64,000 bases of DNA from Cryobacterium sp. PH31-L1 (lineage in GTDB: Bacteria > Actinomycetota > Actinomycetes > Actinomycetales > Microbacteriaceae), in NCBI RefSeq assembly GCF_030063145.1, contig NZ_JASISM010000006.1, positions 186,001 through 250,000 on the forward strand, given 5' to 3'. Shown here piece by piece: positions 1 through 23,591 of the stretch; the stretch's first letter is position 1, and each line of letters opens with the position of its first letter. The notes beneath the pieces were generated by a model. The model ran no database searches. It was not told the origin of the DNA and saw only the letters and a program-made list of their open reading frames with translations. The position numbers were made by a program, and so were the translations under genes.

Positions 1-820
1 CGCCCTAGCATCGTCGATTGTCTTGGCTCTGCGACCGCGGCCAATACAGGCGCCGATCGTTGACCGTCGCGGTCTTCTCGCTGAGCTGAAGGCGACCCTT
101 CCCGATGCATTGCGTGAGCTCCAGCAGGGTGCCATTGCTCCCGTCGACCTTGCGCAAGCCGCCATCGGTCCGGGTATGGCCATTTTTTCTAAGTACTCAC
201 GGGTTATTGAGCCAGCCGGCGGCGACATGAGTGTTAGAGACGCGCTGCAGCAGATTAACATAGTCCTTGATGAGGTATTGTCGCAGCAAGAAGGCGACTT
301 CGATCGCGAGACGCGGTGGTGTCTCGCTTGGTTCGAGGGGCACGGCTTCGAGACCGGCAACTATGGCGAAGCCGAGACGCTCGCGAACGCGAAGAGCGCA
401 TCAGTTGCGGCACTCGCGCGGTCTGGAATACTCTCGAGCGGAGCTGGCAAGGTGCGTCTCTTCGCGCCCGCCGATTTGCCCGGCGACTATGACCCGACGA
501 CAGACGACCATGTGAGCCTGTGGGAAATTACCCTTCACCTGGCGCGCGCGCTCGGTGACCAGGGTGGTGGGCTCGCGGAGGCCGGGCGGATTCTGGCCCG
601 AGCCGAGGAACGCGGCTTCGATATGGCTCCGGCCCATGAGCTCGCTTACCGGCTTTTCGCGCTCACCGAGAAGAAGGGGCTCGTGCAGCCGGGCATCCTC
701 TTCAACGCCCTCGGTTCGTCGTGGCCCGAACTGCGCGCTGCGGCGAAGGCTGCGACGGACACTCAGCCCGCGCGCACCGTTGTGGGCACCTTCGATTTCG
801 ACACGCTCACCGCAGACTAG
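1..820 (+). CDS. DUF1156 DNA methylase, C-terminal part (5' end outside window)
   Basis: The reading frame is open from the left window edge (codon phase starts at base 2) to the TAG at 818-820, so only about the last 272 residues are present. The stretch LAQAAIGPGMAIFSKYSRV followed by a block around QEGDFDRETRWCLAWFE and YGEAETLA matches the C-terminal half of DUF1156 proteins (COG1743), which are predicted adenine-specific DNA methylases with a Zn-ribbon. The catalytic methylase motifs lie further upstream and are not visible. It is the first visible gene of a coupled operon and ends only 9 bp before the DUF499 ATPase, its usual genomic partner. Its inferred role is host DNA modification in a restriction-like defence system. 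The family call rests on recalled sequence similarity. Confidence 0.82.
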   Translation, partial: ALASSIVLALRPRPIQAPIVDRRGLLAELKATLPDALRELQQGAIAPVDLAQAAIGPGMAIFSKYSRVIEPAGGDMSVRDALQQINIVLDEVLSQQEGDFDRETRWCLAWFEGHGFETGNYGEAETLANAKSASVAALARSGILSSGAGKVRLFAPADLPGDYDPTTDDHVSLWEITLHLARALGDQGGGLAEAGRILARAEERGFDMAPAHELAYRLFALTEKKGLVQPGILFNALGSSWPELRAAAKAATDTQPARTVVGTFDFDTLTAD

Positions 821-829
821 GAACAGACC

Positions 830-3800
830 ATGGCGAAATCCAACACCGACCGCATCAGCGAAGCACTTGACCTGCTCGCCGAAGCGCTAGCACCCGTGAT
901 CGATCAGGTACTGCTTCCCCTTCTCCCTCCGGGAGAAGTCGATTGGACCGGACTGCTCGCGGCCAAAGACGAGATCGAGGGTAAATCCTACGAGCGCACC
1001 GACCCGCAGGTGCAACTGAGGGTCTTCACTGAACGGCTGGGAACCTTCGGGTTCCCCTTTGGCTCGGTGCTTTCCAGGGCTGAGCAGAACTTAGCCGGGG
1101 AGATGCGTGAGGTGCGCGCCAAGTGGGCCCACAAGAAACCCTTCAGCGCTGACGATGCCTATCGGGCTCTCGATACTTGTGAGCGGCTGCTACGCGCCAT
1201 TAATGCCCCGACGCAGGCCGACGGTGTGCGTCAGCTGCGCCTCGATGTGCAGCGCGCCGCCTACAGCGAAGAAACCCGCCGCGACACCCGCAACGCGTCG
1301 GCCATGCCGGCCCTCGCGGCAGCCGACCTTGTGCCATGGCGTGAAGTTCTGCGCCCGCACGTCGACATCGCCAGCGGCGACTTTGCGCGTGCCGAGTTCG
1401 CGGCCGACCTACACCAGGTCTCCAATGGCATTGGTACCCGCGACTACACCGACCCCGTCGAGTTCTTTGCGCGTACGTACCTCACCGACGGCTTGCGCAC
1501 CCTGCTCACTCTGTCTGCCCGCCGCCTCGCCGGTGACGGTAATGCTGCGCCCGTAATCAATTTGCAGACTACCTTCGGCGGGGGTAAGACCCACTCCATG
1601 CTCGCGGTCTGGCATCTGTTCAGTGGTAACGACCTCACGGCGTTTCCGCAGCATGTGCAGGGTTTATTGCACGATCAGCCCGCAGACCTCTTTCGCCGTC
1701 TGATCAAGCGCGTCGCCATTGTGGGTAATGAGCTTGCCCCAGGTCAATCCTGGGCAAAGCCCGATGGCACGGTGATCCATACCCTCTGGGGAGAACTGGC
1801 CTGGCAGCTCGGCGGTGTCGAAGGCTATGCGATGGTCGCCGATGCTGACCGCTCCGCCACGAACCCCGGTTCTGCCCTTCGGGACCTGATCGTTGCCTAC
1901 TCGCCTGCATTGATTCTCATCGACGAGTGGGTTGCTTACGCTCGCGGGCTGTATGGTCGCGATGACCTTCCCGGCGGGTCGTTCGAGACCCAGTTCACCT
2001 TTGCCCAACAGTTAACGGAGGTCGTGAAATCGGTCCCCGGCGCGCTGCTTCTCGTCTCTATCCCGGCCTCGGACATCCGCCGAGATAGCGACGAGCCAGC
2101 AGCCTCCGATCTCGAGGTTGGAGGCGCCAATGGGCGAGCCGCGCTTGAGCGCCTGCAGAATGTTGTCTCCCGCGTGGCCCAGAACTGGACCCCCGCGAGC
2201 TCGCAGGAATCGTTCGAGATCGTGCGCCGCCGGCTGTTCGTCGAACCCAACGCGGATGCCCGCCGCCGGATCGATGCCACCGCCCGCCAGTTCTCGGAGT
2301 TCTACCGCAAGCAGACCGGAGAGCTACCCGCCGAAACTCGCAGCCCTGAATACGAAGCACGGATCCGCGCGGCGTACCCGATCCACCCTGAGCTCTTCGA
2401 CCGGCTCTACGGTGACTGGTCTACATTGGAGCGGTTCCAGCGCACTCGTGGTGTACTGAGGCTGATGAGCGCCGTCGTTCACGCGTTGCATGTGGCAGAA
2501 GACGACTCCCCCCTAATCATGCCCGGGTCGATGCCGCTGGCATCGGCCGCGGTGCGCGACGAGGTGAGCTCTTACCTCGATGACGCGTGGAAGGCTATCA
2601 TCGAGACCGACATCGACGGCGAGAACGCTACCCCTGTGCACATCGACCGGGAACGGCCCCTGTTCGGCGCCCGAGCGCTCACCCGACGCATCTCCCGAAC
2701 CTTGTTTATGGGTTCAGCCGCGACCCTTGGTAGCACGCACAAGGGCATCGAGCGCCAGAAAGTCTTCCTCGGCGTCGCCATGCCCGGCGACACTATCGGT
2801 AACTTCGGCTCTGCTTTGCAGATGCTGGGGGACCGCTCCACCTACCTCTATGCGGAGGGGCAGCGCTACTGGTTCGACCGACAGCCCTCGCTCAACCGCA
2901 TGGCTGGGGAACGCGCCTCGGCAATGCATCCCGAGGACGTCTACGGGGAGGCGGTGCGCCGACTTCGGCTTGGCTCGCGCAGCACGCCGGAGTTCACCGA
3001 TATCGAGGTGGCCCCGTTGTCAACCTCCGACCTGGCCGAAGGAGAATCCTGCCGCTTGGTGATTGCCCACCCACTGCACACGCACAACGCCCGGGGCAAG
3101 GAGTCAACGGCGTGGAACTTCGCTCTGGATCTTGCCCGCAGTCGCGGGGGAGCGCCGCGTCAGAATGCGAACACTTTTGTTGTGCTCGCCGCCGACGAGG
3201 CCCGCTGGAGCGAGCTTAACGAAGCCATCCGCATCTTCCTTGCCTGGAAATACATCGCGGCCAGCGTGGGAGAGCTCGACCTGACGGCAAGTCAGGCTGA
3301 GCAGGCCCGCACTCGCTCCGATGAAGCCAACCGGGTCGTCGACCAGCGGGTGGCCGCCACCTGGATCTGGGCGCTGTACCCGGTGCAGCCTGACGGTGCT
3401 CAGCCTCTGTCGCTCGAGACCAAGAAAATCGAAAGCGGTGAGACGCGGCTGGCCACACGAACTGGAGAAAAGCTCGCCAAAGACGACGTGATCTTCACGC
3501 AGAGTTCCCCGCGCTCGATCGCCCTGGAACTCAGTATTCACCTGCGCACGCGGTGGAACGAAGGTCGAATCAGCGTGGGCGAGTTGTGGCAGTACCACGT
3601 GCGCTACCCGTACCTTGCGCGACTTAGGGACAAGGCCGTGTTGACCGACGCTGTTCAGTCGGTGATGACCGATCCAGGCTGGTCAGAAATGGGCTTCGCC
3701 CTCGCCTCTGGTTACGATGAAAATACTGGCGACTTCATTGACCTGCGCGTGCCCATCTACGAGTCGCAGGCACCGACGATCACTGACGATACGCTGCTCG

Positions 3801-4216
3801 TCGTCCCTTCTCTCGCTGAGGCTCAGCGGATTCGGGAAACGGGTAGGAAGCCAGAGCCGAAGGACTCGGGCGAGCCGGACGGCGCAGGCACGGATCCACA
3901 CCCAGGCGGAACCGCTGCCGGAGGAAACGAGCCGACCGGAACAAAATCGACTGGTTCGGGCGTCTCGGTCTCTGTTCCCAACGCGCGTTTCTCTGGCGTG
4001 GTGGAGCTGCGCACCTCGGAAAACCTCGCTCAGCAGTTGCGGGAAATTGCCGAGGAACTGCTGGTTCACGTGCAGAGCGCCGACCCGGACACTTTCGAGG
4101 TGCAGCTCACCATCAACGCAGGGCGACACCACGGTTTCGACATCGACACTGTTCGCACGGTCAGTGAAAATGGCCGAAATCTCGGGTTCGCCAAGAACCG
4201 GTTCGAGGAGCTGTAA
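830..4216 (+). CDS. DUF499 AAA+ family ATPase
   Basis: This 1128-residue protein belongs to the DUF499 (COG1483) large ATPases, which are almost always encoded next to DUF1156 methylases in defence islands. A Walker A motif, TFGGGKTH, has its lysine at about residue 253. A Walker B-like segment, LILIDEWVAYARG, lies near residues 361-373. The C-terminal third contains a low-complexity Gly/Pro/Thr-rich linker (about 1005-1045) before a final folded segment. The length is normal for the family. It starts 9 bp after the DUF1156 stop, and its TAA overlaps the ATG of the next gene (TAATG at 4214-4218), so translation is probably coupled. The biochemical role of DUF499 is not established; an ATP-driven partner for DNA recognition or modification is an inference. 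Confidence 0.85.
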   Translation: MAKSNTDRISEALDLLAEALAPVIDQVLLPLLPPGEVDWTGLLAAKDEIEGKSYERTDPQVQLRVFTERLGTFGFPFGSVLSRAEQNLAGEMREVRAKWAHKKPFSADDAYRALDTCERLLRAINAPTQADGVRQLRLDVQRAAYSEETRRDTRNASAMPALAAADLVPWREVLRPHVDIASGDFARAEFAADLHQVSNGIGTRDYTDPVEFFARTYLTDGLRTLLTLSARRLAGDGNAAPVINLQTTFGGGKTHSMLAVWHLFSGNDLTAFPQHVQGLLHDQPADLFRRLIKRVAIVGNELAPGQSWAKPDGTVIHTLWGELAWQLGGVEGYAMVADADRSATNPGSALRDLIVAYSPALILIDEWVAYARGLYGRDDLPGGSFETQFTFAQQLTEVVKSVPGALLLVSIPASDIRRDSDEPAASDLEVGGANGRAALERLQNVVSRVAQNWTPASSQESFEIVRRRLFVEPNADARRRIDATARQFSEFYRKQTGELPAETRSPEYEARIRAAYPIHPELFDRLYGDWSTLERFQRTRGVLRLMSAVVHALHVAEDDSPLIMPGSMPLASAAVRDEVSSYLDDAWKAIIETDIDGENATPVHIDRERPLFGARALTRRISRTLFMGSAATLGSTHKGIERQKVFLGVAMPGDTIGNFGSALQMLGDRSTYLYAEGQRYWFDRQPSLNRMAGERASAMHPEDVYGEAVRRLRLGSRSTPEFTDIEVAPLSTSDLAEGESCRLVIAHPLHTHNARGKESTAWNFALDLARSRGGAPRQNANTFVVLAADEARWSELNEAIRIFLAWKYIAASVGELDLTASQAEQARTRSDEANRVVDQRVAATWIWALYPVQPDGAQPLSLETKKIESGETRLATRTGEKLAKDDVIFTQSSPRSIALELSIHLRTRWNEGRISVGELWQYHVRYPYLARLRDKAVLTDAVQSVMTDPGWSEMGFALASGYDENTGDFIDLRVPIYESQAPTITDDTLLVVPSLAEAQRIRETGRKPEPKDSGEPDGAGTDPHPGGTAAGGNEPTGTKSTGSGVSVSVPNARFSGVVELRTSENLAQQLREIAEELLVHVQSADPDTFEVQLTINAGRHHGFDIDTVRTVSENGRNLGFAKNRFEEL

Positions 4217-5745
4217 TGACATCGGGTCCCCCGGTCGTTGTTGGGCGGCGTACGGTCGCACCCGATCCGTCCATTACGAGCGCAGTCGGCAGGCATCATA
4301 GCTTCGAAACGGCGATCGCTGACCTTGTCGACAACAGCGTGGATGCTGCGGCCACTCAAGTGCTGCTCCGGTTTCTCCAGTTGAATGGTGCGGTGACCGG
4401 GTTTCAGATTATTGATAACGGCCACGGAATGGACTCCGAAGCCCTCGATCAAGCGATGACCTTTGCCAAAAAGCGCGAGTATGGAGGCAAGGACCTCGGT
4501 CATTTCGGCATCGGGATGAAGGCTGCATCGTTGAGCCAAGCGGATATCCTGCGGGTCTATTCGCGTCGTGATGGAGCCCAGGCCGCCGGCAGGTCCATCC
4601 GCGCCGCAGCGCCGACCGAGGTCGAGGAGCTCGAGTACGCGGGGGTTGATTCCTACCTCGCTGCCTTCAAACTCGATTTCCCCTTGGCCACGGGCACTGT
4701 GGTCGAATGGGCGGAGCCGCGCACGTTTTTGACCGCCACCAACGAGGACGATCGTGCCCGCTGGCTCGATGAACGGATTGGGGCTATCAGGACCCATCTT
4801 GGCATCGTCTTTCACCGCATCCTTGAAGCGGAGAAACTGACCGTCACGATCGAGGTCTTCGATATCGTTCGTGGCCGACCGGGCGTTCCACGCACGGTCG
4901 AGCCAATCAACCCTTTTGCATATCGACAGGTTGGGCAGGGACCTTTCCCTGCCCAACTCACCATCACGATTGACCGTGCGACCGTGCGAGGCCGAGTGCA
5001 CCTCTGGCCCGCCGCACAGTCAGGCTTGCCCAGCTATCGCCTGAACGGGCGTCCGGGCAGCCTGGCCCAAGGCTTCTTCTTCTATCGCAACGATCGACTC
5101 TTGCAGATGGGCGGCTGGAATACGCTCACAGTCAATCGACCCGAACTCGAGTTTGCGCGGATCGAACTGGACATCGATGAAAGCGTCTCCGATCACATCG
5201 CCATCAATCCCGAGAAGGCTGGCCTAGAACTCGACTCCGATCTGAAGGCAGCCATTCTGGAGGCCATGGTGGGTCAGCAGGGGCAACGCTTTGCAGACTT
5301 CCTGGAAGTGGCAGAATCCACCCGCCACGAATCACGTCGGTACACTAAACGCGCCGTGACTCTGGTTGAGCCTTTCCGAGGGTTCAGCGCTGACATGCTC
5401 GACGCGTTCTCCGCCTCGGTTGAGTTCTCGGATCATGCGGCTGTCGACATCCGTTGGGAGGTGCAAGACAGCGAGGATCCCATTCGAGTCGATCTTGCTC
5501 AACGCTCGATCTGGCTCAACGCCCGCTATCGCGGCGTCATCGTGGGTCACGAGAGCGGTGACAACTACGACGCCCCGTTGGTGAAGACCCTGCTGCTCTT
5601 GGTCTTCTCTCGCTACTTCGAGGGGGACATGCTCGGCTCACGCGAAAAGGCGGAAATCGCGGCCTGGCAACAGCTCCTCACCGCGGCGCTCCGCGATGAG
5701 ATCGCAGCCCAGGCTCGACGAATGGGGAAGGTCAGCAATGAGTGA
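4216..5745 (+). CDS. GHKL (MutL/MORC-like) ATPase of a Z1-type system
   Basis: This 509-residue protein has a complete Bergerat ATP-binding fold at its N-terminus: an N-box with E31, D36 and N40 (ETAIADLVDNSVDA), a G1 box IIDNGHGM (residues 65-72) and a G2 box DLGHFGIGMKAAS (93-105). This class of prokaryotic GHKL ATPase was described as the relative of eukaryotic MORC proteins and is encoded beside Z1-type helicases and PD-(D/E)XK nucleases in predicted restriction-modification loci (Iyer, Abhiman and Aravind 2008). Here it lies exactly in that setting: DUF4420 and Z1 genes follow, each overlapping its neighbour. It may act as an ATP-gated clamp that couples target sensing to helicase or nuclease action; this is inference. 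The ATG overlaps the DUF499 stop. Confidence 0.87.
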   Translation: MTSGPPVVVGRRTVAPDPSITSAVGRHHSFETAIADLVDNSVDAAATQVLLRFLQLNGAVTGFQIIDNGHGMDSEALDQAMTFAKKREYGGKDLGHFGIGMKAASLSQADILRVYSRRDGAQAAGRSIRAAAPTEVEELEYAGVDSYLAAFKLDFPLATGTVVEWAEPRTFLTATNEDDRARWLDERIGAIRTHLGIVFHRILEAEKLTVTIEVFDIVRGRPGVPRTVEPINPFAYRQVGQGPFPAQLTITIDRATVRGRVHLWPAAQSGLPSYRLNGRPGSLAQGFFFYRNDRLLQMGGWNTLTVNRPELEFARIELDIDESVSDHIAINPEKAGLELDSDLKAAILEAMVGQQGQRFADFLEVAESTRHESRRYTKRAVTLVEPFRGFSADMLDAFSASVEFSDHAAVDIRWEVQDSEDPIRVDLAQRSIWLNARYRGVIVGHESGDNYDAPLVKTLLLLVFSRYFEGDMLGSREKAEIAAWQQLLTAALRDEIAAQARRMGKVSNE

Positions 5746-6733
5746 TCGTAGCGGAGGTGAGGACCTCCTTCACCTCTCGCCCGAGACAGTGGAAGCCTAT
5801 TTCACCGCGGGGGTGCAATCTGCATTTACGCTGGACGGACGGGTGAGCGCCCGTCTGGAAATCGACCCTCAACATGAGCAAATGCGCCTCCTTTGCCCGG
5901 CAGTCGGGAGTGACCCCGACGTGATTTCCTATGAACGGATCTCCTTCGATCGTGTCGGAATTCTTGGAGCGCCCGGAGAATGGTTCGAGCTAGTTGTCGA
6001 CGCCTCGGGGATGCACTACGAGGCCTACGTTTTACTGGAGTCCGTCGTTGATCAGCTGCGCGGCGGCGCATCCTTCCGCCATGCGGTGTCCGAATCCCTG
6101 TCGGGCCTCAAAGATCTTCTGGCTAGTCGCAAGCGGATGAGTGAAGCCGTGATCACCGGACTCGTCGGGGAGCTCCTACTGCTGCGCCACATCATCTCGG
6201 AACGTGGCGATGAGGCCGCCCTCGCGGCCTGGCTCGGTCCTCTTGCCGAGGAACATGACTTTGCCCTGGAAGAATTCGAGGCAGAGGTCAAGACCACCCA
6301 ATCCGAGGGGCGGATCCACCTGATCGGCTCCGAGACCCAACTTCTTCCGACTCCAGGCCGTCCGTTGTACCTCATTTCAGTACAACTCACAAGAGCCGGT
6401 GCCGCCGCAGACTCCTTTACCTTGCCCGAACTTATTGACGCGGTGCGCGCCTCCATCGATGTGAGTCGCCTACGTACCTTCGACAAGCACCTTGAATCTC
6501 TCGCTTGGCATCACGCGGATGCCGACCTGTACTCGGTTCGCTACCAGCAGCGTTCCGTGCCGCAGGCCTATCTGGTTGATGGCGAATTTCCAGCGCTCAC
6601 GACGCCACGGCTGAATGAGGTCGTGCCGCAACGCGCCCTTGTTAGTGGGGTCACCTACCGCGTCGACGTTTCCACGCTGCACCCTACTCAGCCCCCTGCG
6701 CCGCTTGCCACCTTCTGCGAGGACACCGAATGA
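5738..6733 (+). CDS. PD-(D/E)XK motif protein (DUF4420), predicted nuclease
   Basis: The protein has 331 residues from the ATG at 5738, which is preceded by a GGGGAAGG ribosome-binding site and lies inside the last codons of the GHKL gene (8-bp overlap). An in-frame ATG 42 bp upstream is less likely. The segment EFEAEVKTTQSEGRIHLIGSE carries the E183-x-K185 core of a PD-(D/E)XK restriction fold, preceded by acidic residues and followed by a predicted beta strand (YLISVQL). This is the arrangement of DUF4420 proteins, which occur between GHKL and Z1 genes. It is the best candidate for the nuclease of the operon. The start codon of the Z1 gene overlaps its TGA (ATGA at 6730-6733). Cleavage activity and specificity are not known from sequence. 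Confidence 0.82.
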   Translation: MSDRSGGEDLLHLSPETVEAYFTAGVQSAFTLDGRVSARLEIDPQHEQMRLLCPAVGSDPDVISYERISFDRVGILGAPGEWFELVVDASGMHYEAYVLLESVVDQLRGGASFRHAVSESLSGLKDLLASRKRMSEAVITGLVGELLLLRHIISERGDEAALAAWLGPLAEEHDFALEEFEAEVKTTQSEGRIHLIGSETQLLPTPGRPLYLISVQLTRAGAAADSFTLPELIDAVRASIDVSRLRTFDKHLESLAWHHADADLYSVRYQQRSVPQAYLVDGEFPALTTPRLNEVVPQRALVSGVTYRVDVSTLHPTQPPAPLATFCEDTE

Positions 6734-9700
6734 CAACGACCGAGATCCCCGCTGCGGTCAGTACTGCTATCCGTGGTGCGCTTCAGGGCATGAACCACAG
6801 CGGTCCGGAAGGCCTGCTCGACACGGTCAATCTGAAGCTCAAGCGATCGGGCGTGACCTTGAGTGAAACTGAACTTATCGACGCGATCGTCGCCACCGGC
6901 GTCAACGACCCGGCGCGAACTTCGACCCACATTGCGCTCGCCCGATGGGACGCCGAACCTGAGGCTGACTGGATCGATGGTACGCAAGCCGGAACCCTTC
7001 CACGCCGCACGCGAACCCTCGACCTGCTCGAACTCGGGGAGCAGAGTCGCCCCCGCTTGGACGAGGCATTTCCCCGGCTCGCGCAGCAAGACATCGTTAT
7101 TTCTGGTCCGTGGGATGCCTGGTACACCGCGCAACGCCGGCAGGAACATGACTTCTACTGGAAGGCCTACCGGGGAGTCCTCGAAGGCAAAGGGTGGGAC
7201 CCGACCGCCATCGCTGCCGTCGACGTCTCGACGACGAACATTATCAGCCGGCTCGCTGACCCTGCAGTGAAGAAGGCGTACCAGTCCAAGGGGCTCGTCG
7301 TCGGTTACGTACAGAGCGGGAAGACCGCCAACTTCACCGGCATAGTCGCGAAGGCCATCGATTCCGGCTACAGACTCATCATCGTGCTCACAGGCACGGT
7401 CGAACTTCTGCGGGCCCAGACGCAGCGCCGCCTCGACATGGAACTTATCGGCGAAGAGAACATCCTCGAAGGGCGCGATCCCAGCAACCCAGACTTGATC
7501 AAGGGCGTCGACTACGTCAGCACGGGTGACCAGGACTGGATCGACGGTAAATTTCTGCGTCACGGCGTTCCGATCATCGAACTTGACGACGTGCCACTCA
7601 TCAAGCGCCTGACAACCATGTCCGGCGACTACAAACTACTCAAAGCGGGAATTGACGCCATTGATTTTCGTCGGGCGGGCGCTCTCAAGGACCGGACAAA
7701 ACCCGTCAACGACCCCGTCAACCTGTACTCCAGTGATGTTCGCATTGCGGTCGTCAAGAAGAACCCTGCTGCCCTGAAGAAACTGCTTGCGGACCTGAAA
7801 GCGGCGCGTGCTGATCTCGGTGAGATCCCTACGCTGATCATCGACGATGAGGCAGACCAAGCATCGGTCAACACAATCAACCCCAATCGGCAGCACCTCG
7901 CCGAAGAGGACAAGAAGCGCACCGCTATCAACGGACTGATCAGCAAGATGCTTGAGCAGTTGAAGCGCGCCCAATACATCGGTTACACGGCCACGCCCTT
8001 CGCCAACGTTTTCATCACGCCTGATGATTCCAAGGACATCTTCCCCAAAGACTTCATTATCAGCCTCGAGCCCTCGCCCAGCTACATGGGCGGCAAGTCC
8101 TTTCACGACATTAATGGGCTCCCGTCGGACGAGGCGATCACAGCGACCAACTCGAACGAGAAAGCCTTCGTTCGCAACCTCCTCTGTGACGATGGTGAGG
8201 GAGAACTGCGTGAGATTCGCGATGCACTTGACGCATTCGTGCTTTCCGGTGCCATCAAGCTCTGGCGCCAGATAAAGGACCCCGCCTTGCGCTTTCGTCA
8301 TCACACCATGCTGGTGCACGAGTCTGTGAAACAGGATGAGCATTCCGAGCTGGCCAACAAGATCCGGTCGGTGTGGATGCATGCCGATTACTCCAGCCCA
8401 GCGGGACTCGATCGACTTGAGGAGCTTTTCCTCACAGACTTTTTGCCGGTGCACCAAGCCCGGGACACCTGGGGAACGGAAATGCCGGTCACTTTTGGTG
8501 ATCTCATGAGACCGATCGGCCGAGCAGTCGATTTGGTCACCGCCAGCGGAGACCCGGTGGTCGTGGTCAACGGATCGAAGGACAGCGACTACAAGGCCGT
8601 CGATTTCCAGAGGGGGCCGTACTGGCGCATTATGGTGGGCGGCGCCAAATTGAGTCGCGGGTTCACTGTCGAGGACCTCACTATCTCTTATTACCGGCGC
8701 AGGGCCGGCGCTGCCGACACACTCATGCAAATGGGTCGCTGGTTTGGCTACCGTCCGGGCTACAAAGACCTGGTCAGGCTTTACATCGCACGCGATGCCA
8801 AGGACACGCGAGGAAAGACCTATGACCTGTATGAGGCCTTCACCTCGATCATTGAGGACGAGGAGGCCTTCCGGGACCAACTCCGAAGCTTTGCCATACT
8901 CGACGAAGATGGCCGTCCGCAGGTCCTACCGATTGACGTGCCGCCGATGGTCTACCAGCAGCTGCCTTGGCTGAAGCCGACAGGGGCCAACAAGATGTAC
9001 AACGCCGTCCTCGACTTCGAAGGCGACGGTGGTAAGTTTAAAGAGTTCCTGCGCCAACCCGACCGCGGCAAAGGAGCGACAAACGAAGCACACTTCGCTG
9101 CAGTCCGCGACTGGGTAAGCGCCTTGGGAGAGCTCCAGACCTTCGAATACAAGGAAGGCCAACCGGCAAAGACGAAATCTTTTCAGGCTCGGGTCGCGAT
9201 CGTGCCGGCGCATGATCTGTATACGCAATTGAAGAAGTTTCAGTGGACGGTCAACTATTCGTTGGAACCGACACTTCGGTTCATGAAGAACGCTATCGAC
9301 AAGGGCGAACTGGTCGACTGGGCGGTCATGGTCCCCTATTTGGCGGACGCGCCGATTCGGAACGTTGACGGTATCGATGTTCCTCTCCTAACGCGTACCC
9401 GTCGGCAAGATCGTCCTGGCTTCACCGGCTTTTCATTCCGGCAGAGGTCCGCCATTATGCGCATGGCCGGCAGCCCGTATGAGCACGGCGGGCCGGCAGC
9501 AGACGCGCACCACACCCCGACCCGAGGGGCGCTGCTTCTGAACTTCTCGGCGGACCCCGATGAAAAGGATCCAAAGGGTCGCAAAGCCACGGATCCAGGT
9601 TGGGAAGGCCCCACTGAATCTCCCGATGTCGCAACAATCTTTGCGCTGGCCATGCCCTACATGAGCGCTCCGCGGGGACGGATGGGATTTCGAGTGCGCG

Positions 9701-9774
9701 ACGACTCCCAGCCGGACAAACCCATCCTCAATGAGGAGGATCTCAAGAAGCTCGGCATCACGGGCGACGAGTAA
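6730..9774 (+). CDS. Z1 domain superfamily II helicase-like protein
   Basis: This 1014-residue protein has the full signature of Z1 proteins: a Walker A motif GYVQSGKTAN (K198), the helicase motif II DDEAD at residues 372-376, motif III YIGYTATPFANVF, and the diagnostic Z1 segment GGAKLSRGFTVEDLTISYY followed by QMGRWFGYRPGY. Z1 proteins are helicases found with MORC-like GHKL ATPases and restriction nucleases in defence operons. It is probably the motor or translocase of the system. The gene overlaps the DUF4420 stop by 4 bp and is the last gene of the operon; the next gene is convergent. All motifs appear intact, so the system may be functional. Confidence 0.9.
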   Translation: MTTTEIPAAVSTAIRGALQGMNHSGPEGLLDTVNLKLKRSGVTLSETELIDAIVATGVNDPARTSTHIALARWDAEPEADWIDGTQAGTLPRRTRTLDLLELGEQSRPRLDEAFPRLAQQDIVISGPWDAWYTAQRRQEHDFYWKAYRGVLEGKGWDPTAIAAVDVSTTNIISRLADPAVKKAYQSKGLVVGYVQSGKTANFTGIVAKAIDSGYRLIIVLTGTVELLRAQTQRRLDMELIGEENILEGRDPSNPDLIKGVDYVSTGDQDWIDGKFLRHGVPIIELDDVPLIKRLTTMSGDYKLLKAGIDAIDFRRAGALKDRTKPVNDPVNLYSSDVRIAVVKKNPAALKKLLADLKAARADLGEIPTLIIDDEADQASVNTINPNRQHLAEEDKKRTAINGLISKMLEQLKRAQYIGYTATPFANVFITPDDSKDIFPKDFIISLEPSPSYMGGKSFHDINGLPSDEAITATNSNEKAFVRNLLCDDGEGELREIRDALDAFVLSGAIKLWRQIKDPALRFRHHTMLVHESVKQDEHSELANKIRSVWMHADYSSPAGLDRLEELFLTDFLPVHQARDTWGTEMPVTFGDLMRPIGRAVDLVTASGDPVVVVNGSKDSDYKAVDFQRGPYWRIMVGGAKLSRGFTVEDLTISYYRRRAGAADTLMQMGRWFGYRPGYKDLVRLYIARDAKDTRGKTYDLYEAFTSIIEDEEAFRDQLRSFAILDEDGRPQVLPIDVPPMVYQQLPWLKPTGANKMYNAVLDFEGDGGKFKEFLRQPDRGKGATNEAHFAAVRDWVSALGELQTFEYKEGQPAKTKSFQARVAIVPAHDLYTQLKKFQWTVNYSLEPTLRFMKNAIDKGELVDWAVMVPYLADAPIRNVDGIDVPLLTRTRRQDRPGFTGFSFRQRSAIMRMAGSPYEHGGPAADAHHTPTRGALLLNFSADPDEKDPKGRKATDPGWEGPTESPDVATIFALAMPYMSAPRGRMGFRVRDDSQPDKPILNEEDLKKLGITGDE

Positions 9775-10840: not shown

Positions 10841-12637
10841 ATGCGTCATGTAGTTGGGGGGAATGTATTGCGAATAAAGACCTACAATCCGTACAAGTCA
10901 ATAGTCGAGACACCAATAGCCGATGAGCTGCCTGACTTCACCCTGATAACAGGGGCAAACGGATCCGGCAAGACGCATCTTCTTGAGTCCATGCGCGAGA
11001 TGGCGACTCAGTTCGACGGTGGTTACGGCGGCCGGATGCCTAGGATGCTGGGTACTGCCGACCTGCAGATCATGGATCACATTTTGGCATCGCCAGAGAC
11101 TCGAGAGCAGAAAGTAGATCAGCTGCGCGCTTCGGTCGCTGAGCAAAACAGTCGGACTCGTGGCACTGCCGATCACAGGCAGATGATGCAGAATTTCCTC
11201 GTTCAGAATGGAATTCTGAGCGCTGCAGCGTTATCTGCTGCAGAGCTGAATGCTGGCAAGCCGCTCGAGAACTGGACTGATTCTGACTTTGCAAGGTTCA
11301 CGCCCTTGGAGATCGGACGCAGGGACCATTTCTCAGTAATGGTTGCGGACGTCTTCTTCAACTATGTCTATTTGCACACACTGAATGGCTACAAACAATG
11401 GCGTTCAGCAGAGTTCGGTGACGACGTTGACTGGATCGAAGCTGATGACTTCTTACGGATGCACGGAACTCCACCGTGGGATCTGCTCAACCGAGTTCTC
11501 GAGGATGTTGGCCTCAACTACCAATACGAGACACCGGAGCCGTTAGTGATGCCACCCTACCCAGCACCACGACTCGTGGACATCGGTACCGGCCTAGACC
11601 TTCCACCGAGCGAGCTTTCCTCCGGTGAAAAGACGCTTCTCACGATTGCTCTCTCGATTTACTCGGTCAACAACCGAAAAAACGCCGTCGAGCCCCCTTC
11701 CGTTATTCTGCTCGACGAGCCGGATGCGACCCTGCATCCATCGATGGTGCGAAGTCTCCTGAAATTGGTGCGTGAGGAGATCGTTGGCAACCTCGCCGTT
11801 CCGGTAATTATGACAACCCACTCGCCGACGACCGTCGCCCTCGCCGAGGAAGATTCCATATTCGTCATGCAACGCACAGCATCTCCGCGCCTCCGGAAAG
11901 CCAGCAAAGATCAAGCGCTAAAATCCCTCCTCGTTGGCGTGCCTGCGCTGAGCGTGCGAGCGGAAAATCGTCGCACGGTAATAGTCGAGAGTCCGAACGA
12001 TGAGCGGGTCTACACGATGGCGGCCGCTCTCATTTCCCCCATGATCGGCAGTGAGCGTTCCCTTCAGTTCATGGCCGCCGGGAGCTCACTCCTACCAAAC
12101 GGTTGCGATGCAGTGGTCGACCTAGTAACTCGCCTGCGCGCAAATGGCAATGATCTGGTGTGGGGATTCGTCGACCGAGATGAACGCTCGCGGGAACCGG
12201 GCGCACACGTCTACTTCGACGCAGCGCGCCACTCCATCGAGAACTTGTTCTTAGACCCGCTCGCCGTGGGACTCCTTCTTCTTCGAGACGGGGAACCGCG
12301 AATGGTAGCCGCGCTGGGGTCGACAAACTACGTCAGCTTCGATAGGTCCCGCGCTGAGGCACTCGTGAGCTGGCTAACTGAAAAACTCGTGCAGAGCGGA
12401 GACGATCGGACACCCAGGTCCGTGTCCTATTCGGACAATTGCATCCTCGACATCGAGGCTTTCTGGCTCGACACTCGAGGTCATAATCTCTGTGACAGGT
12501 TGCTCACTGTCTTCCCCAGCCTGAAAGCGCATAAGGGCCGCCTACTGGATGACGTAGTTAAGTTTGTATGGGCGGAACATCGATGGGTCGTTCCACTCTC
12601 AACGGTGAACACGATGACACGCTTTCTTGAGGACTAG
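10841..12637 (+). CDS. AAA ATPase with C-terminal TOPRIM/DUF4435-like domain (OLD-like)
   Basis: This 598-residue protein has an SMC/ABC-type ATPase head: a Walker A motif TGANGSGKTHLLES (K44), the signature LSSGEKTLL, the Walker B motif VILLDEPDATLHP and an H-loop TTHSPTTVAL. After about residue 375 comes a second domain with VIVESPNDERVY, FVDRDE and HSIENLFLDP, matching the E, DxD and H-x-IEN pattern of DUF4435, a TOPRIM-like nuclease or RNase M5-like fold. Fusions of this kind resemble OLD-family and related anti-phage ATPases. The ATG at 10841 has a GAGG 9 bp upstream; a TTG at 10868 behind a GGGGGG run would give a more family-like N-terminus (RIKTYNPYKSI). It stands alone, without an obvious partner gene. 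Its codons are more AT-rich than those of its neighbours, suggesting acquisition. Confidence 0.8.
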   Translation: MRHVVGGNVLRIKTYNPYKSIVETPIADELPDFTLITGANGSGKTHLLESMREMATQFDGGYGGRMPRMLGTADLQIMDHILASPETREQKVDQLRASVAEQNSRTRGTADHRQMMQNFLVQNGILSAAALSAAELNAGKPLENWTDSDFARFTPLEIGRRDHFSVMVADVFFNYVYLHTLNGYKQWRSAEFGDDVDWIEADDFLRMHGTPPWDLLNRVLEDVGLNYQYETPEPLVMPPYPAPRLVDIGTGLDLPPSELSSGEKTLLTIALSIYSVNNRKNAVEPPSVILLDEPDATLHPSMVRSLLKLVREEIVGNLAVPVIMTTHSPTTVALAEEDSIFVMQRTASPRLRKASKDQALKSLLVGVPALSVRAENRRTVIVESPNDERVYTMAAALISPMIGSERSLQFMAAGSSLLPNGCDAVVDLVTRLRANGNDLVWGFVDRDERSREPGAHVYFDAARHSIENLFLDPLAVGLLLLRDGEPRMVAALGSTNYVSFDRSRAEALVSWLTEKLVQSGDDRTPRSVSYSDNCILDIEAFWLDTRGHNLCDRLLTVFPSLKAHKGRLLDDVVKFVWAEHRWVVPLSTVNTMTRFLED

Positions 12638-12977: not shown

Positions 12978-15017
12978 CTAGCCAGAAACGGTCATGAAGG
13001 TACCTTGCTCCTGCCGAGCATCCGCTGCCTGCGTGTTTTCGGAGGCGGTCGGCGCCGTCATGTCGGCGGCCGGCATGAGTACTGAAGGCAGCACCTTGCC
13101 ATGTCGTTGCCGCAGATAGTCGATGCTGGCCTCAGAGCTCGGGTCGTAGCCAAGAGCGTCCTTGACGAAAGTCATTCGATGGCGAGCGTCTTGGATAATT
13201 CGGGCCCAAGTGACTGCCCGGATTGTGATGTGGTGCCCCTCTTGCTCAAAGTCTTGATAGACATCGTCAGGCAAATTGCCCTGACCAAACTTGTGCTTTA
13301 TGCGGTCGTCGATCTTGTCTCCGACGATCCAAAACTCCCAGACGGTGTCAATGGCTGCGAATCTTGTGTCGGCTGCAACCGTCTGAGCGTAATTCTCGAT
13401 CTGGGCAAGTTGCTCTTGTCCAATTGAGATTGAAGGTCGCTTGAGCTCAATCACGATGTGCTCACGGTGATTACGAGATTGTTCAATGACTCGGCTGAGC
13501 ATCATGTCCACGACGACGATGCGCCCGTCTGCATCCATCACGGGCAAGTCGAGGTCGCCCGGTGCCAAGTCATGTCGTCCCAAAAGACCGGTATGGGCCT
13601 TTAGGGCTGTTCGCAGGGTGGTGTCGTCCGCAGTCAGCGCGTACTCCTCGCGAAATACCCAGGTTTCCTCGGCGAGGATACGGTGGAGCTGGCGGCGCTC
13701 AGTCACCAGCTTCTTTAGAACGGAGTCATTGATGATTTCCTCTAGCCCGGTGAGAAATTCTAGGCGCCCGACAACCTGACTTCCTACGCGTAGAAGCGCC
13801 CCCAGGGAAGTCTTCTTGATGAGGTCGCTGAGCTCGTCGGCCTCCTCAGCAGTCAGATTAAGGACTTCTTCCAAAATGTGACGAACGCTAGAGGGGCTCG
13901 TCTCCACAGCATTTTTCAAGAGCTCTAAGGACAGTTTGCGGGCTGCGAAGTCTGTCTTCTCAACTATGGGTGCAGCCGCAACGGCGACGATGTCAAAGAT
14001 TCCGCGGGCTGCCTCTTCCACCCGATTCTTCGGGGGCTCTCGAAATGGATATGAGTCCTCATCTCTCCACTGCCTGATCAGGCGGGCAGAACGCTCATCG
14101 TCCTTGGCGGCAAAGTGCTGCCGTAACGCGTCGCGAGATGCTTCAATCACCGACTTGACAGGCTCGGGAGCGCCATCTTCCAGAGCCAGCATGTCGACGT
14201 CATCGGCGAAGCCGGACCACTTGATATAAGCCGTGAAATTGTAGCCAGGAGCATGAATGCTGGGTTTCATGTCATGCAGCGAGTTCCCTGAAGCGTCGCA
14301 TAAGTAAAGGTGACGACGCATTGCGGACTTCCATTCGATCACGGTGACCGTTATCGCACCGTCTACTCCTTCGACCAGAAGTGGAATGTCAATCTGATCT
14401 TTCTTGAGCGCTTCCACGCTCAGCTGATGACCGCGCCAAGAGAGCTGGAGGCCGTACTGCTCGATCTGAAGCGCGAACGTTGGTAGCAAATCCTCGATGA
14501 CAGCATCGGATTGCACATACGACGCCCCGCGCGAAGTCAGGTTTGCGATTTCGACCGTGACGCCGGTTGAGGCATCGGGTGCGGGAGAGAGTTCAGATAC
14601 GCGAAATTGCTTGAGCTCAGCGCTGTTGGCCGTGATCGAAAATCGCACGCGTCCGTCGGCTGTACTGTCCGAAATACTTGTCCACCGAACCGAGTTGCCG
14701 ACGCCGAGCGCAGCCCAACGTCCCTCACCCTTTGCGCCGTGCAATGCCCGCCCACCTGGGCTCTGTTGCGTCAAGCGTTTCCATGAATGCCCGAGTGCCC
14801 CAAAAGTCTGCTTTCGGTCGTCGGGTGCGATGCCAGTACCATCGTCTGCGACAGTTAGTTTCTCGATCCCACCGAGGGCACCGAACTCCACTTCAAGAGC
14901 GATGGCGGTGGCATCCGCATCTATTGCATTCCAAATCAACTCAGCCAAGGCCACCTTTGGTGTCTTGGCTAGCGTCGCAAGGTGCGGTTGTTCGACCACA
15001 ACGTCTAAAGTTTCCAT
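12978..15017 (-). CDS. GHKL ATPase fused to a Shedu-like PD-(D/E)XK nuclease domain
   Basis: Starting at the ATG at 15017 the protein has 679 residues; an upstream in-frame start at 15119 adds 34 residues that do not look conserved. The N-terminus is a Bergerat-fold ATPase: AELIWNAIDADA (E26, N30, D33), VADDGTGI (56-63) and a Gly-rich lid ALHGAKGEGRWAALGVG. The C-terminal part contains VVDMMLSR and then REHIVIELKRPS (about 514-529), the D...E-x-K core of a PD-(D/E)XK nuclease in a Shedu/DUF4263-like context, followed by an AQIENYAQTV helix. This is a single-gene ATPase-nuclease and a likely defence protein. It is divergent from the relaxase gene and independent of the first GHKL operon. Confidence 0.8.
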   Translation of the reverse strand: METLDVVVEQPHLATLAKTPKVALAELIWNAIDADATAIALEVEFGALGGIEKLTVADDGTGIAPDDRKQTFGALGHSWKRLTQQSPGGRALHGAKGEGRWAALGVGNSVRWTSISDSTADGRVRFSITANSAELKQFRVSELSPAPDASTGVTVEIANLTSRGASYVQSDAVIEDLLPTFALQIEQYGLQLSWRGHQLSVEALKKDQIDIPLLVEGVDGAITVTVIEWKSAMRRHLYLCDASGNSLHDMKPSIHAPGYNFTAYIKWSGFADDVDMLALEDGAPEPVKSVIEASRDALRQHFAAKDDERSARLIRQWRDEDSYPFREPPKNRVEEAARGIFDIVAVAAAPIVEKTDFAARKLSLELLKNAVETSPSSVRHILEEVLNLTAEEADELSDLIKKTSLGALLRVGSQVVGRLEFLTGLEEIINDSVLKKLVTERRQLHRILAEETWVFREEYALTADDTTLRTALKAHTGLLGRHDLAPGDLDLPVMDADGRIVVVDMMLSRVIEQSRNHREHIVIELKRPSISIGQEQLAQIENYAQTVAADTRFAAIDTVWEFWIVGDKIDDRIKHKFGQGNLPDDVYQDFEQEGHHITIRAVTWARIIQDARHRMTFVKDALGYDPSSEASIDYLRQRHGKVLPSVLMPAADMTAPTASENTQAADARQEQGTFMTVSG

Positions 15018-15416
15018 GCGCCCAGCATGGCAGGGATCACCCGTTGCCTCGTCCAAAGCCGCGATACGCGCTGTCCGCTTGGTCACCCCCACATCGGGCA
15101 GCAGTCGGACCGGTCTCAAGCGTCCAGCGGTGGTCCGTGTCGAGGTCCTCGGCGCCTGCGGGCGTCCACACGTCAGGAGTCCGTGGCCACCGACCCCGGC
15201 ACCTGCATCACCCGCCTGCTTCGTTCCTGGTTCGTGCTCCCGAGGGTTGTCGCCTCCGGGTTGGGCTTGGCGTCCTCATACGGGCGGCGGCCTGAATCCG
15301 CTTGACCGAGACACTATTGGCCCCGCATCGCTTGGATTTCTGTGCCGCCGAAGCGTCCAAGCGGAGCCTTTTGAGGGTCGCGGCGCACCTTCGTCATGAT
15401 GACGGAGGTGGCTGCG
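15018..15416. other. divergent intergenic region between GHKL-nuclease and relaxase genes
   Basis: This 399-bp stretch is GC-rich and contains no recognisable gene in any frame. It must carry the promoters of both flanking genes. The only clear signal is GGAGGTGG at 15404-15411, the ribosome-binding site of the relaxase. An origin of transfer would be expected near a MobF gene, but no inverted repeat strong enough to name as oriT was seen. Confidence 0.6.
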
Positions 15417-18400
15417 ATGACGGTGTCGATGCGGGTGATGAGTGCCGGGGACGGCTACAAGTACCTGCTGCGCACCGTCGCCGCCAGCGACGGCGACCGC
15501 TCGATGTTGACTCCGCTCACCCGGTACTACACCGCGGAGGGCACACCGCCTGGCCGCTGGATGGGCGGCGGCCTTCCCGGGCTCGGCGGCGGCCTCATCG
15601 TCGAGGGCGATCAGGTCACCGAGGCGCAGCTGCAGCTGCTAATCGGGTTGGGGCGCGACCCGGTAACGGGCGAACCCCTCGGGCGCGCGTACCCGGTCTA
15701 TCGCTCTGCCGCCGACCGCGCCCTGGACCGGCCACCCGCCGACGGTGACGGCATCACCGAACGGGCTGCGGCATCCGCTGTGGAACAGCCGGACGAGAAG
15801 CGGCGGCGGGCAATTGCGGGGTATGACTTTACGTTTTCGATTCCGAAGTCGGCGAGCATCCTTTGGGGTGTGGGTGACGCGGCCACGAGGGAGCGCATCG
15901 TGGCGGCCCACCATGCGGCGGTGGCCGAGGTGCTGGCGTACATGGAGCGGGAGGTTGCGGCGACGCGCACCGGCACGACGGCGCAGGGCGGTGCGGTGGC
16001 GCAGGTCGATGTGACCGGGCTGATCGCGACGGCGTTTGATCATTTCGACAGCCGGGCCGGCGATCCGCACCTGCACACGCACGTCGTGATCAGCAACAAG
16101 GTGCAGACCGTGCTCGACGGCAAGTGGCGCTCGCTCGACGGCCGGCCGATGCACGAGGCCGTGGTGGCGCTCTCCGAACTACACGAGAGTCTGTTCGCTG
16201 ACGAGCTCACGCGATCGCTCGGCGTGCAGTGGGAAAGGCGGGAGCGGGGGCGAGATCGCCACCCGGCGTGGGCTCTGGCGTGCGTGCCGGAGGCGCTCGT
16301 TGCGGAGTTCTCGACGCGTGTTCGGCACATCGATGTCGAGACCGACCGGCTGATCGAGGAGTACGTGACCAGTCACGGGCGACGTCCGAGGCCGGTGACG
16401 ATCATGAAGCTGCGCGCGCAGGCCACGCTCGCCACACGGCCGGCGAAGCAGGTGCACTCGCTGGCGGATCTCACGGCGGCGTGGCGGGAACGTGCTTCAC
16501 GCGTGCTCAGGCACGAAATGTTGCCGGTCGCCAAGTCGTCGCCAGTGCTGCTGCGTGCCGAGGACTTACCGCGCGAGGCCGTGGATACGCTCGGGCTGAG
16601 CGTGATGACGGCCGTCAGCGAGAAGCGTGCCACCTGGCGGCACTGGAATCTCCAGGCCGAGGCCGCACGCCAAACGATGCCGTACCGGTTCGCGGCGGCA
16701 TCCGATCGGGTGGCCGTCGTCGGCCTCATAGTGGATGCTGCCGAGCGCGCGTCCCTGCGCCTCACGCCGCCAGAGCTCGCCGTGAGCCCTTTGGAGTTTC
16801 AACGGGAGGATAGGACGTCGGTATTTCGGCCGAAGCATTCCGAAGTGTTCACGTCGACGGAGTTGCTGGACGCGGAAGCTCGGCTGCTCGAGCGGGCTGC
16901 GCTTGTGACGGCGCCGCGAGTGGCGCTCGATACGGCCGCTGGTGCTCGGTTGCCGGGTGGTGGGCGGCTCGCCGACGACCAGATCGCGGCGCTCAGGTCC
17001 GTCGCTGGCTCGGGCCGCGTGATCGATGTATTGGTGGGGCCGGCCGGCGCGGGCAAGACGACAGCGATGAATTTGCTCCGGCGGGCTTGGGAGTCAGCGT
17101 ATGGAGCAGGATCAGTCGTCGGGCTCGCGCCGTCGGCTGCCGCCGCGACGGTGCTGGCGACGGATCTCGGCATTGCGACCGAGAACCTGGCGAAATGGTG
17201 GCAGACCCATGTCGACCAGGGCTCCTCGTTTCGGGCCGGGCAGCTCGTGATCATTGACGAGGCATCCCTAGCCGGCACGCTGCCGCTGGATCGGATCGCC
17301 GCGCTGGCGGCTTCAGTCGGCGCGAAGGTGCTGCTGGTCGGCGACTACGCGCAGCTGCAGTCGGTCGATGCAGGTGGTGCGTTCTCGCTGCTCGTGCACG
17401 ATCGAGCGGATGCGCCCGAACTCATCGACGTGCACCGCTTCGTGCACGAGTGGGAGAAGACCGCATCCCTTGGGCTGCGCCAGGGCAACCCCGACGTGAT
17501 CGACCGGTATGCCGCGCATGACCGTCTGCATGATGGCAGCACCGAGGAGATGGCGGATGCTGCCTACGAGGCGTGGCGTGTGGACATCCGCTCGGGAAAG
17601 TCGACCGTGCTGATCAGCGACTCGAATGAGGCCGTCGAAGCGCTGAACGTGCGAGCTCGCACCGAACTGATTCTGGAGGGTCGGGTCGACGCGCTGCGCG
17701 AAGTCGCCCTGCATGACGGAACCCGCGCCGCTGTCGGTGACACGGTCATCACCCGGAGGAACGACCGGCGGCTGTACGCGTCGCGTAGCTGGGTGCGCAA
17801 CGGCGACCGGTGGAACGTGATCGGCGTGCATCGGAATGGTTCGGTTGAGGTGCGGCGGCAGGGGCGACGGTGGGGGAGCACGGTGTTGCTGCCCGCGTCG
17901 TACGTCGCTCAGTATGTGGAGCTGGGCTACGCGGTCACCTCGCATCGGGCGCAGGGGATAACGACCGATACCGCGCACGTCGTTGTCGCGCCGAGCACGC
18001 CGCGCGAGAACCTGTACGTGGCGATGACGCGGGGTCGCGAGGCGAACACCGTCTACGTCGCCGTCGACCGGCCCAATGTTGCGCACGTGGGGCCGCGGCC
18101 AGGTGACGCTGCGGATGTGACGGCGCGCAGCATCCTCTATGGCATTCTGCAGCACGTCGGCGCCGAGCTGTCCGCACACGAGACTCTCGCGGCCGAGCAG
18201 GATGCCTGGGGATCGGTGGCGCAACTCGCGGCGGAGTACGAGACCCTCGCGGCGGCCGCGCAGCACGACCGATGGGCGGCGGTCGTGCGGGCGAGCGGTC
18301 TCTCGCCTTCGCAGGCTTTGGATGTGGTCCATTCGGATGCCTTCGGTCCGTTGACCGCGGAGCTGCGTCGAGCCGAGGCCCACTTCGTAAACGTTGCGAG

Positions 18401-18950
18401 CCTGCTGCCGCGCGTGGTCGCGGCCCGCGGGTTTGAGGATGCGCAGGATATTGCGGCGGTGCTGCGTGCCAGGGTCGCGGCGGTCGTCGCGCGAGATACC
18501 GGGGCAGGTCGCACGCGCCGGGTGCCTCGTCTTGTCGCCGGGCTGATCCCTCGTGCTATCGGTCCGATGGATGCTGCCATGCACCAGGCGTTGGCCGAGC
18601 GCGCCGACCTGATCGAGTCGCGTGCGGCCGCCGTGCTCGACCAGGCGTTGCTCGCGGGGGAACCGTGGACTCGAGCGCTCGGCTCCGCGCCGCGTGGATC
18701 GGCCGCCGCCAGGTGGCAGCAGAACGGATTCACTGTCGCGGCCTACCGAGACCGCTACTGCATCACCGGCGCTCTGCCGCTCGGTGCGGCACCGGAATCG
18801 ACGGCACAGAAGCTCGATGCTGCTCGGGCTCGTGCCGCGCTCGAGGCAGCACGGCGTCTGAAATCTGTTAATTCAGATGATTCACCCAGACGCACTGCGA
18901 GTGCGATAATTCCGGCCAGGGAATCAGCTGCAAACAAACTTTCAGTCTAA
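15417..18950 (+). CDS. MobF-family relaxase / TraA-like conjugative helicase
   Basis: This 1177-residue protein nicks DNA at an origin of transfer and unwinds it for conjugation. The N-terminal TrwC relaxase domain has the nucleophile region GDGYKYLLRT near residue 15 and the metal-binding triad H218, H220, H222 (DPHLHTHVV). The RecD-like helicase follows: Walker A VGPAGAGKTTAMN (K547), Walker B LVIIDEASLAG, VGDYAQLQSVDAGG, and the C-terminal motif YAVTSHRAQGITTDTAHVVV with MTRGREANTVYV. The start at 15417 is chosen because GGAGGTGG lies 6 bp upstream; an ATG 21 bp earlier is possible. It is a full-length gene. The presence of this gene shows that the island was or is part of a mobilisable or conjugative element. 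Confidence 0.92.
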   Translation: MTVSMRVMSAGDGYKYLLRTVAASDGDRSMLTPLTRYYTAEGTPPGRWMGGGLPGLGGGLIVEGDQVTEAQLQLLIGLGRDPVTGEPLGRAYPVYRSAADRALDRPPADGDGITERAAASAVEQPDEKRRRAIAGYDFTFSIPKSASILWGVGDAATRERIVAAHHAAVAEVLAYMEREVAATRTGTTAQGGAVAQVDVTGLIATAFDHFDSRAGDPHLHTHVVISNKVQTVLDGKWRSLDGRPMHEAVVALSELHESLFADELTRSLGVQWERRERGRDRHPAWALACVPEALVAEFSTRVRHIDVETDRLIEEYVTSHGRRPRPVTIMKLRAQATLATRPAKQVHSLADLTAAWRERASRVLRHEMLPVAKSSPVLLRAEDLPREAVDTLGLSVMTAVSEKRATWRHWNLQAEAARQTMPYRFAAASDRVAVVGLIVDAAERASLRLTPPELAVSPLEFQREDRTSVFRPKHSEVFTSTELLDAEARLLERAALVTAPRVALDTAAGARLPGGGRLADDQIAALRSVAGSGRVIDVLVGPAGAGKTTAMNLLRRAWESAYGAGSVVGLAPSAAAATVLATDLGIATENLAKWWQTHVDQGSSFRAGQLVIIDEASLAGTLPLDRIAALAASVGAKVLLVGDYAQLQSVDAGGAFSLLVHDRADAPELIDVHRFVHEWEKTASLGLRQGNPDVIDRYAAHDRLHDGSTEEMADAAYEAWRVDIRSGKSTVLISDSNEAVEALNVRARTELILEGRVDALREVALHDGTRAAVGDTVITRRNDRRLYASRSWVRNGDRWNVIGVHRNGSVEVRRQGRRWGSTVLLPASYVAQYVELGYAVTSHRAQGITTDTAHVVVAPSTPRENLYVAMTRGREANTVYVAVDRPNVAHVGPRPGDAADVTARSILYGILQHVGAELSAHETLAAEQDAWGSVAQLAAEYETLAAAAQHDRWAAVVRASGLSPSQALDVVHSDAFGPLTAELRRAEAHFVNVASLLPRVVAARGFEDAQDIAAVLRARVAAVVARDTGAGRTRRVPRLVAGLIPRAIGPMDAAMHQALAERADLIESRAAAVLDQALLAGEPWTRALGSAPRGSAAARWQQNGFTVAAYRDRYCITGALPLGAAPESTAQKLDAARARAALEAARRLKSVNSDDSPRRTASAIIPARESAANKLSV

Positions 18951-22343: not shown

Positions 22344-23591
22344 ATGGAGTTTCCACCTATCGGCTGGACAAATAAGAGCGTTTGTCTTGACCACATTGAG
22401 GACGAATATCTCAGGGCACGTCTGGCGCCGGATGTCGCAGAACACGTCTGTTCGTTTTGCCCGCGAACGTCTACCAATGGCGCAGCGGCCATTGCCGTTA
22501 ATCTTGAACACTTGGCGGCAGTAGTTGCCGAGGTCGCTGTACGGTTTTACGAGGACGCGGTCAACGCACCTTTCATGGACGGAGAGATATCTGTTCAGGA
22601 CTTCGACACTCTCGAGGTCGTTTACAACATGCTTGACGATTCCCTACCGGCTTCACTTCTGGACTCAATAGTCAAGTCAGTCGCCGAACTGATTCACGAG
22701 CCACAAATCTGGATAAGGCTCGATAACGTTTCCTACGTGGAGTTCGGCTGGTCGAGCTTCGCCGACACCGTCAAGCACACCTCACGGCTCGTTCTTGCCC
22801 CTCGGTCTGGTCACGCTCAGGAACCCACACCGCCTGAGGATCTGTACACATTCCTAACGGCGCTTTCGGGGATCGTCAATGAGACGACGGGTCTAGTGCA
22901 AGTGCTAGAAGCCGGAGCGCGTATTTATAGAGCCCGAATTGAACGCGACGCTGGGGCATTGGAGAGGGAAGTCCAGGAGGATCCAGCCAAGAAGCTTGGC
23001 CCAGCTCCCCAGGGGAGCGCAGCTGCGGGCCGAATGAATGCGCAGGGCATTTCACTTTTCTATGCCGCGATGGAGGAAGAGACCGCTTGTGCCGAGGTGG
23101 TCGCGCACAGCGCATACAACGAAGCAGTAGTGGGGGAGTTCACGGTCCAACAGCCATTGCGCATCTTCGACCTGACGCGGGTACCAGTGCGGCCGAGTAT
23201 TTTCGATGAGAGTGCCGGTCCGATATATCCGTTCATCGCGTTCTTTGACCTCTTCCGTGATGCCATCACGCAGCCAGTCATCCTCGACGGTAAGCACCCA
23301 GTCGATTACGCGCCAACTCAGGTCGTCACGGAGTTTCTGCGGTGGGGCACGCAAGCGAAGCTGGACGGCATTGCATGGGAGTCCCGCGTAGTACCTGACG
23401 GCAAGAACATCGTACTGTTCTACGGTCCTGACACGCCGATGCGTTCAACTAAGGAACCGGACAAGGAAGAGTCCGAGCTTTGGAGGCTCACATTCGGGGC
23501 CGCGGCGGAGCCTATATTCATTATCGACCCTTCCTCGATACGTCGGTATGAGGCCGAACGGACGGTTTCAGTGCGTAAGTCGCGGTGGTGA
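22344..23591 (+). CDS. HEPN/RES N-terminal domain plus RES domain protein, toxin-like
   Basis: This 415-residue protein has an N-terminal domain with CSFC near residue 40 and a helical region, similar to the HEPN/RES N-terminal domain. From about residue 190 it has a RES domain: RIYRARIERDAG supplies the first Arg, GRMNAQGISLFYAAMEEETACAEV supplies the conserved Gly-Arg-hydrophobic-Glu block, and a Ser-containing C-terminal part follows. RES toxins (for example MbcT and ParT) act on NAD+ or transfer ADP-ribose, usually with an Xre-type antitoxin. Only 134 bp separate it from the upstream gene and no antitoxin gene is visible on either side, so it may be a long orphan RES protein in a defence setting. 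Confidence 0.75.
   Translation: MEFPPIGWTNKSVCLDHIEDEYLRARLAPDVAEHVCSFCPRTSTNGAAAIAVNLEHLAAVVAEVAVRFYEDAVNAPFMDGEISVQDFDTLEVVYNMLDDSLPASLLDSIVKSVAELIHEPQIWIRLDNVSYVEFGWSSFADTVKHTSRLVLAPRSGHAQEPTPPEDLYTFLTALSGIVNETTGLVQVLEAGARIYRARIERDAGALEREVQEDPAKKLGPAPQGSAAAGRMNAQGISLFYAAMEEETACAEVVAHSAYNEAVVGEFTVQQPLRIFDLTRVPVRPSIFDESAGPIYPFIAFFDLFRDAITQPVILDGKHPVDYAPTQVVTEFLRWGTQAKLDGIAWESRVVPDGKNIVLFYGPDTPMRSTKEPDKEESELWRLTFGAAAEPIFIIDPSSIRRYEAERTVSVRKSRW

What the first reader, a model, noticed from the sequence alone, without database searches (positions are those of the whole stretch)
1..9774. Hybrid operon joining the DUF1156-DUF499 pair with a GHKL-DUF4420-Z1 module
The five genes are separated by 9 bp or less and four junctions are overlaps or near-overlaps, so they form one transcription unit. 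DUF1156-DUF499 is known as one defence pair, and GHKL-nuclease-Z1 as another (MORC-like restriction loci). Here the methylase of the first seems to replace the C5 methylase usually expected with the second. All ATPase and nuclease motifs are intact. If this combination recurs in other genomes, it would be a distinct restriction-like system in which DUF499 links modification to a clamp-helicase-nuclease effector.
Basis: partly seen in the sequence, partly recalled or inferred. Interest (0 to 1): 0.78.

Follow-up and report, generated by a model that had tools for sequence, protein, structure and literature searches.

The report
Restriction operon with swapped cutting module
In this actinobacterium and in seven other genomes, the predicted DNA-marking half of one known bacterial immune system sits directly in front of the predicted DNA-cutting half of another, and the two halves likely work together as a single anti-virus system.

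The parts
1..820 (+). 3' part of hmaB (DUF1156 DNA methylase; full gene 949 aa, G000:C30:183971-186820)
   Evidence: motifs DPFAGGGT and DPPY
830..4216 (+). hmaC: Swt1-type HEPN domain fused to a DUF499 AAA+ ATPase, 1128 aa
   Evidence: R96-x4-H101 and GGGKT invariant in 64 aligned homologues; model, fold match
4216..5745 (+). MORC-type GHKL ATPase, 509 aa (MzaB-like)
   Evidence: best solved relatives MORC2; model
5738..6733 (+). DUF4420 PD-(D/E)XK predicted nuclease, 331 aa (MzaD-like)
   Evidence: E143, D172, EVK 181-183 (numbering of a 329-aa reading that starts two codons later)
6730..9774 (+). [not shown]
   Evidence: Walker A, DDEAD, TAT and DTLMQMGRWFGYR

Best explanation
[not shown]
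For: Same order in 8 genomes. HmaA profile: no match above 17 bits in 4.7-16 kb upstream of hmaB in the seven other hybrids and none in the own genome. 36 HmaC loci: HmaA or trio, never both. HmaC tree: one change separates 28 hybrid from 29 canonical rows, support 100; the same with 8 against 20 rows. Trio trees reject one origin, so the pairing with this HmaC clade arose, or was renewed, at least twice in the same order. HmaC's only PDB fold match with E under 0.001 is a BrxC-BrxB fusion with the effector PglZ. GHKL is nearest to MORC2. Motifs kept.
Confidence: 0.6

Rival explanations
1. Two separate defences share a promoter: an Hma system that lost HmaA beside a MORC/MZA-type restriction system, with no functional contact.
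Against: Overlapping genes, the same order in 8 genomes, the one-branch split of HmaC by effector and at least two joinings.
Confidence: 0.15
2. [not shown]
For: HEPN R-x4-H is invariant in 64 aligned HmaC of this subfamily. C5 methylase near 7 of 8 hybrids. PMC12839542 proposes HEPN as a suicide effector (section 29).
Against: The window has no C5 partner nearby yet keeps all five genes and motifs. Most other HmaC carry the same HEPN motif (R in 45 and H in 50 of 58), so it is not special to this pairing.
Confidence: 0.15
3. HmaB replaced the C5 methylase of a MORC-type restriction system.
For: The window's locus has no C5 methylase or Vsr gene in 64 kb plus 13 kb upstream, and the genome has no Vsr.
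Against: Seven of eight hybrids keep a C5 methylase within about 5 kb.
Confidence: 0.1

Closest known systems
Hma (PADLOC) = Type-1 DUF499-centred BREX-related (BR) system (PMC8565338, PMC12839542)
   Same: HmaB and HEPN-fused HmaC, neighbouring, with full-length model matches
MORC operons of the third type (PMC2292703) and MZA (PADLOC/NCBIfam models)
   Same: GHKL, RE-fold protein and SFII helicase with the DThhQXuRhFG motif (DTLMQMGRWFG here); in seven hybrids a C5 methylase is nearby
   Different: Adds HmaB and HmaC; Mza models match far below their cut-offs; no C5 methylase near the window's operon; no AIPR protein or sigma factor among the neighbours scanned
Type I / II candidate system of PMC9523054 (2022)
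   Different: Cannot tell: type I's three additional genes are not named in the text held; they may include GHKL, HmaB and HmaC
BREX
   Same: HmaC model's one PDB match with E under 0.001 is the BrxC-BrxB fusion with PglZ, 9zn5
   Different: No PglZ or other Brx protein named in the family scans of the operon and its scanned neighbours

Membership tests
Hma / Type-1 BR | N6-type methylase HmaB with DUF1156 | tested here: met
   methylation itself not tested
Hma / Type-1 BR | DUF499 ATPase HmaC (often HEPN-fused) | tested here: met
Hma / Type-1 BR | SNF2 helicase(-nuclease) HmaA | tested here: not met
   none in the own genome nor upstream of the seven other hybrids
MORC operon, third type (PMC2292703) | GHKL ATPase of the MORC kind | tested here: met
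   profile's best solved relative MORC2, 5.7e-9
MORC operon, third type (PMC2292703) | SFII helicase with DThhQXuRhFG and RE-fold protein with E-D-ExK | tested here: met
   DTLMQMGRWFG; GE, D, EVK
MZA (NCBIfam equivalogs) | MzaB, MzaC, MzaD above the curated cut-off | tested here: not met
   100.5 of 850, 274 of 1500, 61 of 420 bits
MZA | mzaA sigma factor and AIPR protein | tested here: inconclusive
   not seen among neighbours scanned; a GHKL-sigma70 fusion lies beside the Agromyces allii hybrid
[not shown]
   C5 methylase absent at the window, present near 7 other hybrids; other genes of type I unknown to me
BREX | Protection against phage and self-marking by methylation | not testable with these tools
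   needs experiments

The most novel reading that the evidence does not exclude
This is a fourth effector class of DUF499-centred BREX-related systems: HmaC is a plug-board that chooses the cutting machine, and one HmaC clade has been wired, more than once, to a MORC clamp-nuclease-motor trio instead of an SNF2 helicase-nuclease, while methylases are exchanged freely. The part of HmaC after its ATPase core (about residues 641-1120), where the two effector classes differ most, would be the socket.
Probability: 0.45. Interest if true: 0.75.

Novelty: new variant of a known kind. Interest (0 to 1): 0.6.

Why it matters
How recognition and modification hand over to cutting in BREX and its relatives is open. 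Here nature appears to have exchanged the whole cutting machine behind the same methylase-ATPase pair, and of the five proteins only HmaC has a tree that follows the exchange. That makes the handover testable by swapping HmaC between an HmaA-type and a trio-type system. It also ties a MORC-type ATPase to an adenine-type methylase in bacteria, which bears on how eukaryotic MORC proteins came to respond to DNA marks.

Tried and rejected

Row choices: all trees are 'quick'. In one search I kept the 44-odd trio-only loci that had DUF4420 or were picked for spread, 20 of 73 trio-only loci (17 for DUF4420). In one search I used 20 of 29 canonical rows, leaving out two long branches (L127, L174) and seven near-duplicates or partial rows; with 25 canonical rows gave the same picture for HmaB (3 changes, at least 2 forced). 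One search leaves out 3 fetched loci with partial or distant HmaC (L128-L130) and counts 2 plasmid loci; of its 29 HmaA loci, 26 score 746 bits or more and three are weak or cut by the stretch's end (L116 292, L120 228, L187 163 bits). I fetched context for 17 of 33 places and 20 of 40. The group widened by L008, L009, L010 and L067 was named after seeing the tree; for DUF4420 only L008 could be added and the test is weak (p 0.043).

Full report

What is exchanged. In 36 full HmaC loci whose neighbourhood I fetched, 29 had HmaA and no trio, 2 had the trio and no HmaA, none had both, and 5 showed neither, three of them on contigs under 6.5 kb. Three of the 29 HmaA matches are weak or cut off. 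The seven other hybrids show no HmaA in 4.7-16 kb upstream of hmaB, where canonical loci mostly have it. So the trio stands in for HmaA, though placed after HmaC.

How it likely works. HmaC's predicted structure (mean pLDDT 86) has one PDB match with E under 0.001, the BrxC-BrxB fusion bound to PglZ (E 2.3e-6, TM 0.29). The GHKL profile's best solved relatives are MORC2, MORC4 and MORC3, then PMS1, SMCHD1, topoisomerase VI and MutL; its model matches SMCHD1, HSP90, MORC3 and MutL. PMC2292703 (passages) proposed that in such operons the MORC protein links cleavage site and recognition site while the helicase unwinds. PMC3710099 (passages) proposed DNA looping for HEPN-DUF499. PMC12839542 (abstract; sections 13, 28, 29, 30, 33; part 1 of 35; [quoted passage not shown] From these I infer: HmaB marks self, HmaC loads on unmarked DNA and recruits clamp, motor and nuclease. 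The GHKL family has Asp where MutL has Glu (Glu recalled), so ATP turnover needs checking.

Limits. All hybrids found are Actinomycetota. Phylum-sample loci (25, short flanks) and viral contigs (36) gave none. Counts come from samples and capped lists, not a census.

Noticed in passing
window 10841-12637 (+): OLD/AAA_21-type ATPase, best PADLOC match ATPase-Toprim_I-B (81 bits), downstream of the operon.
   Followed up: no
window 12978-15119 (-): A second GHKL protein with a weak HSDR_N-like C-terminal match, nearest to the BbrUII/HgiDII restriction family but far below cut-off.
   Followed up: no
window 15396-18950 (+); L002:4289-7563: TrwC relaxase, and upstream Prim-Pol and ParB-type genes: the operon probably rides on a mobile element.
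   Followed up: partly
window 22344-23591 and 24712-28368 (+): A HEPN/RES protein and a YobI-like ATPase: further defence-like genes.
   Followed up: no
L252:6158-10807 (Agromyces allii): 1549-aa fusion of a GHKL domain with sigma-70 regions 1.2 to 4 between hmaB and the C5 methylase.
   Followed up: partly
[not shown]
   Followed up: partly
L100-L106: Proteins in one family (f16) that match only HmaC residues about 680-1007, without its ATPase.
   Followed up: no
[not shown]
   Followed up: partly
hmaB: PMC8565338 calls HmaB an m5C methyltransferase, PADLOC's model and PMC12839542 an adenine methylase; the DPPY motif fits the latter.
   Followed up: partly
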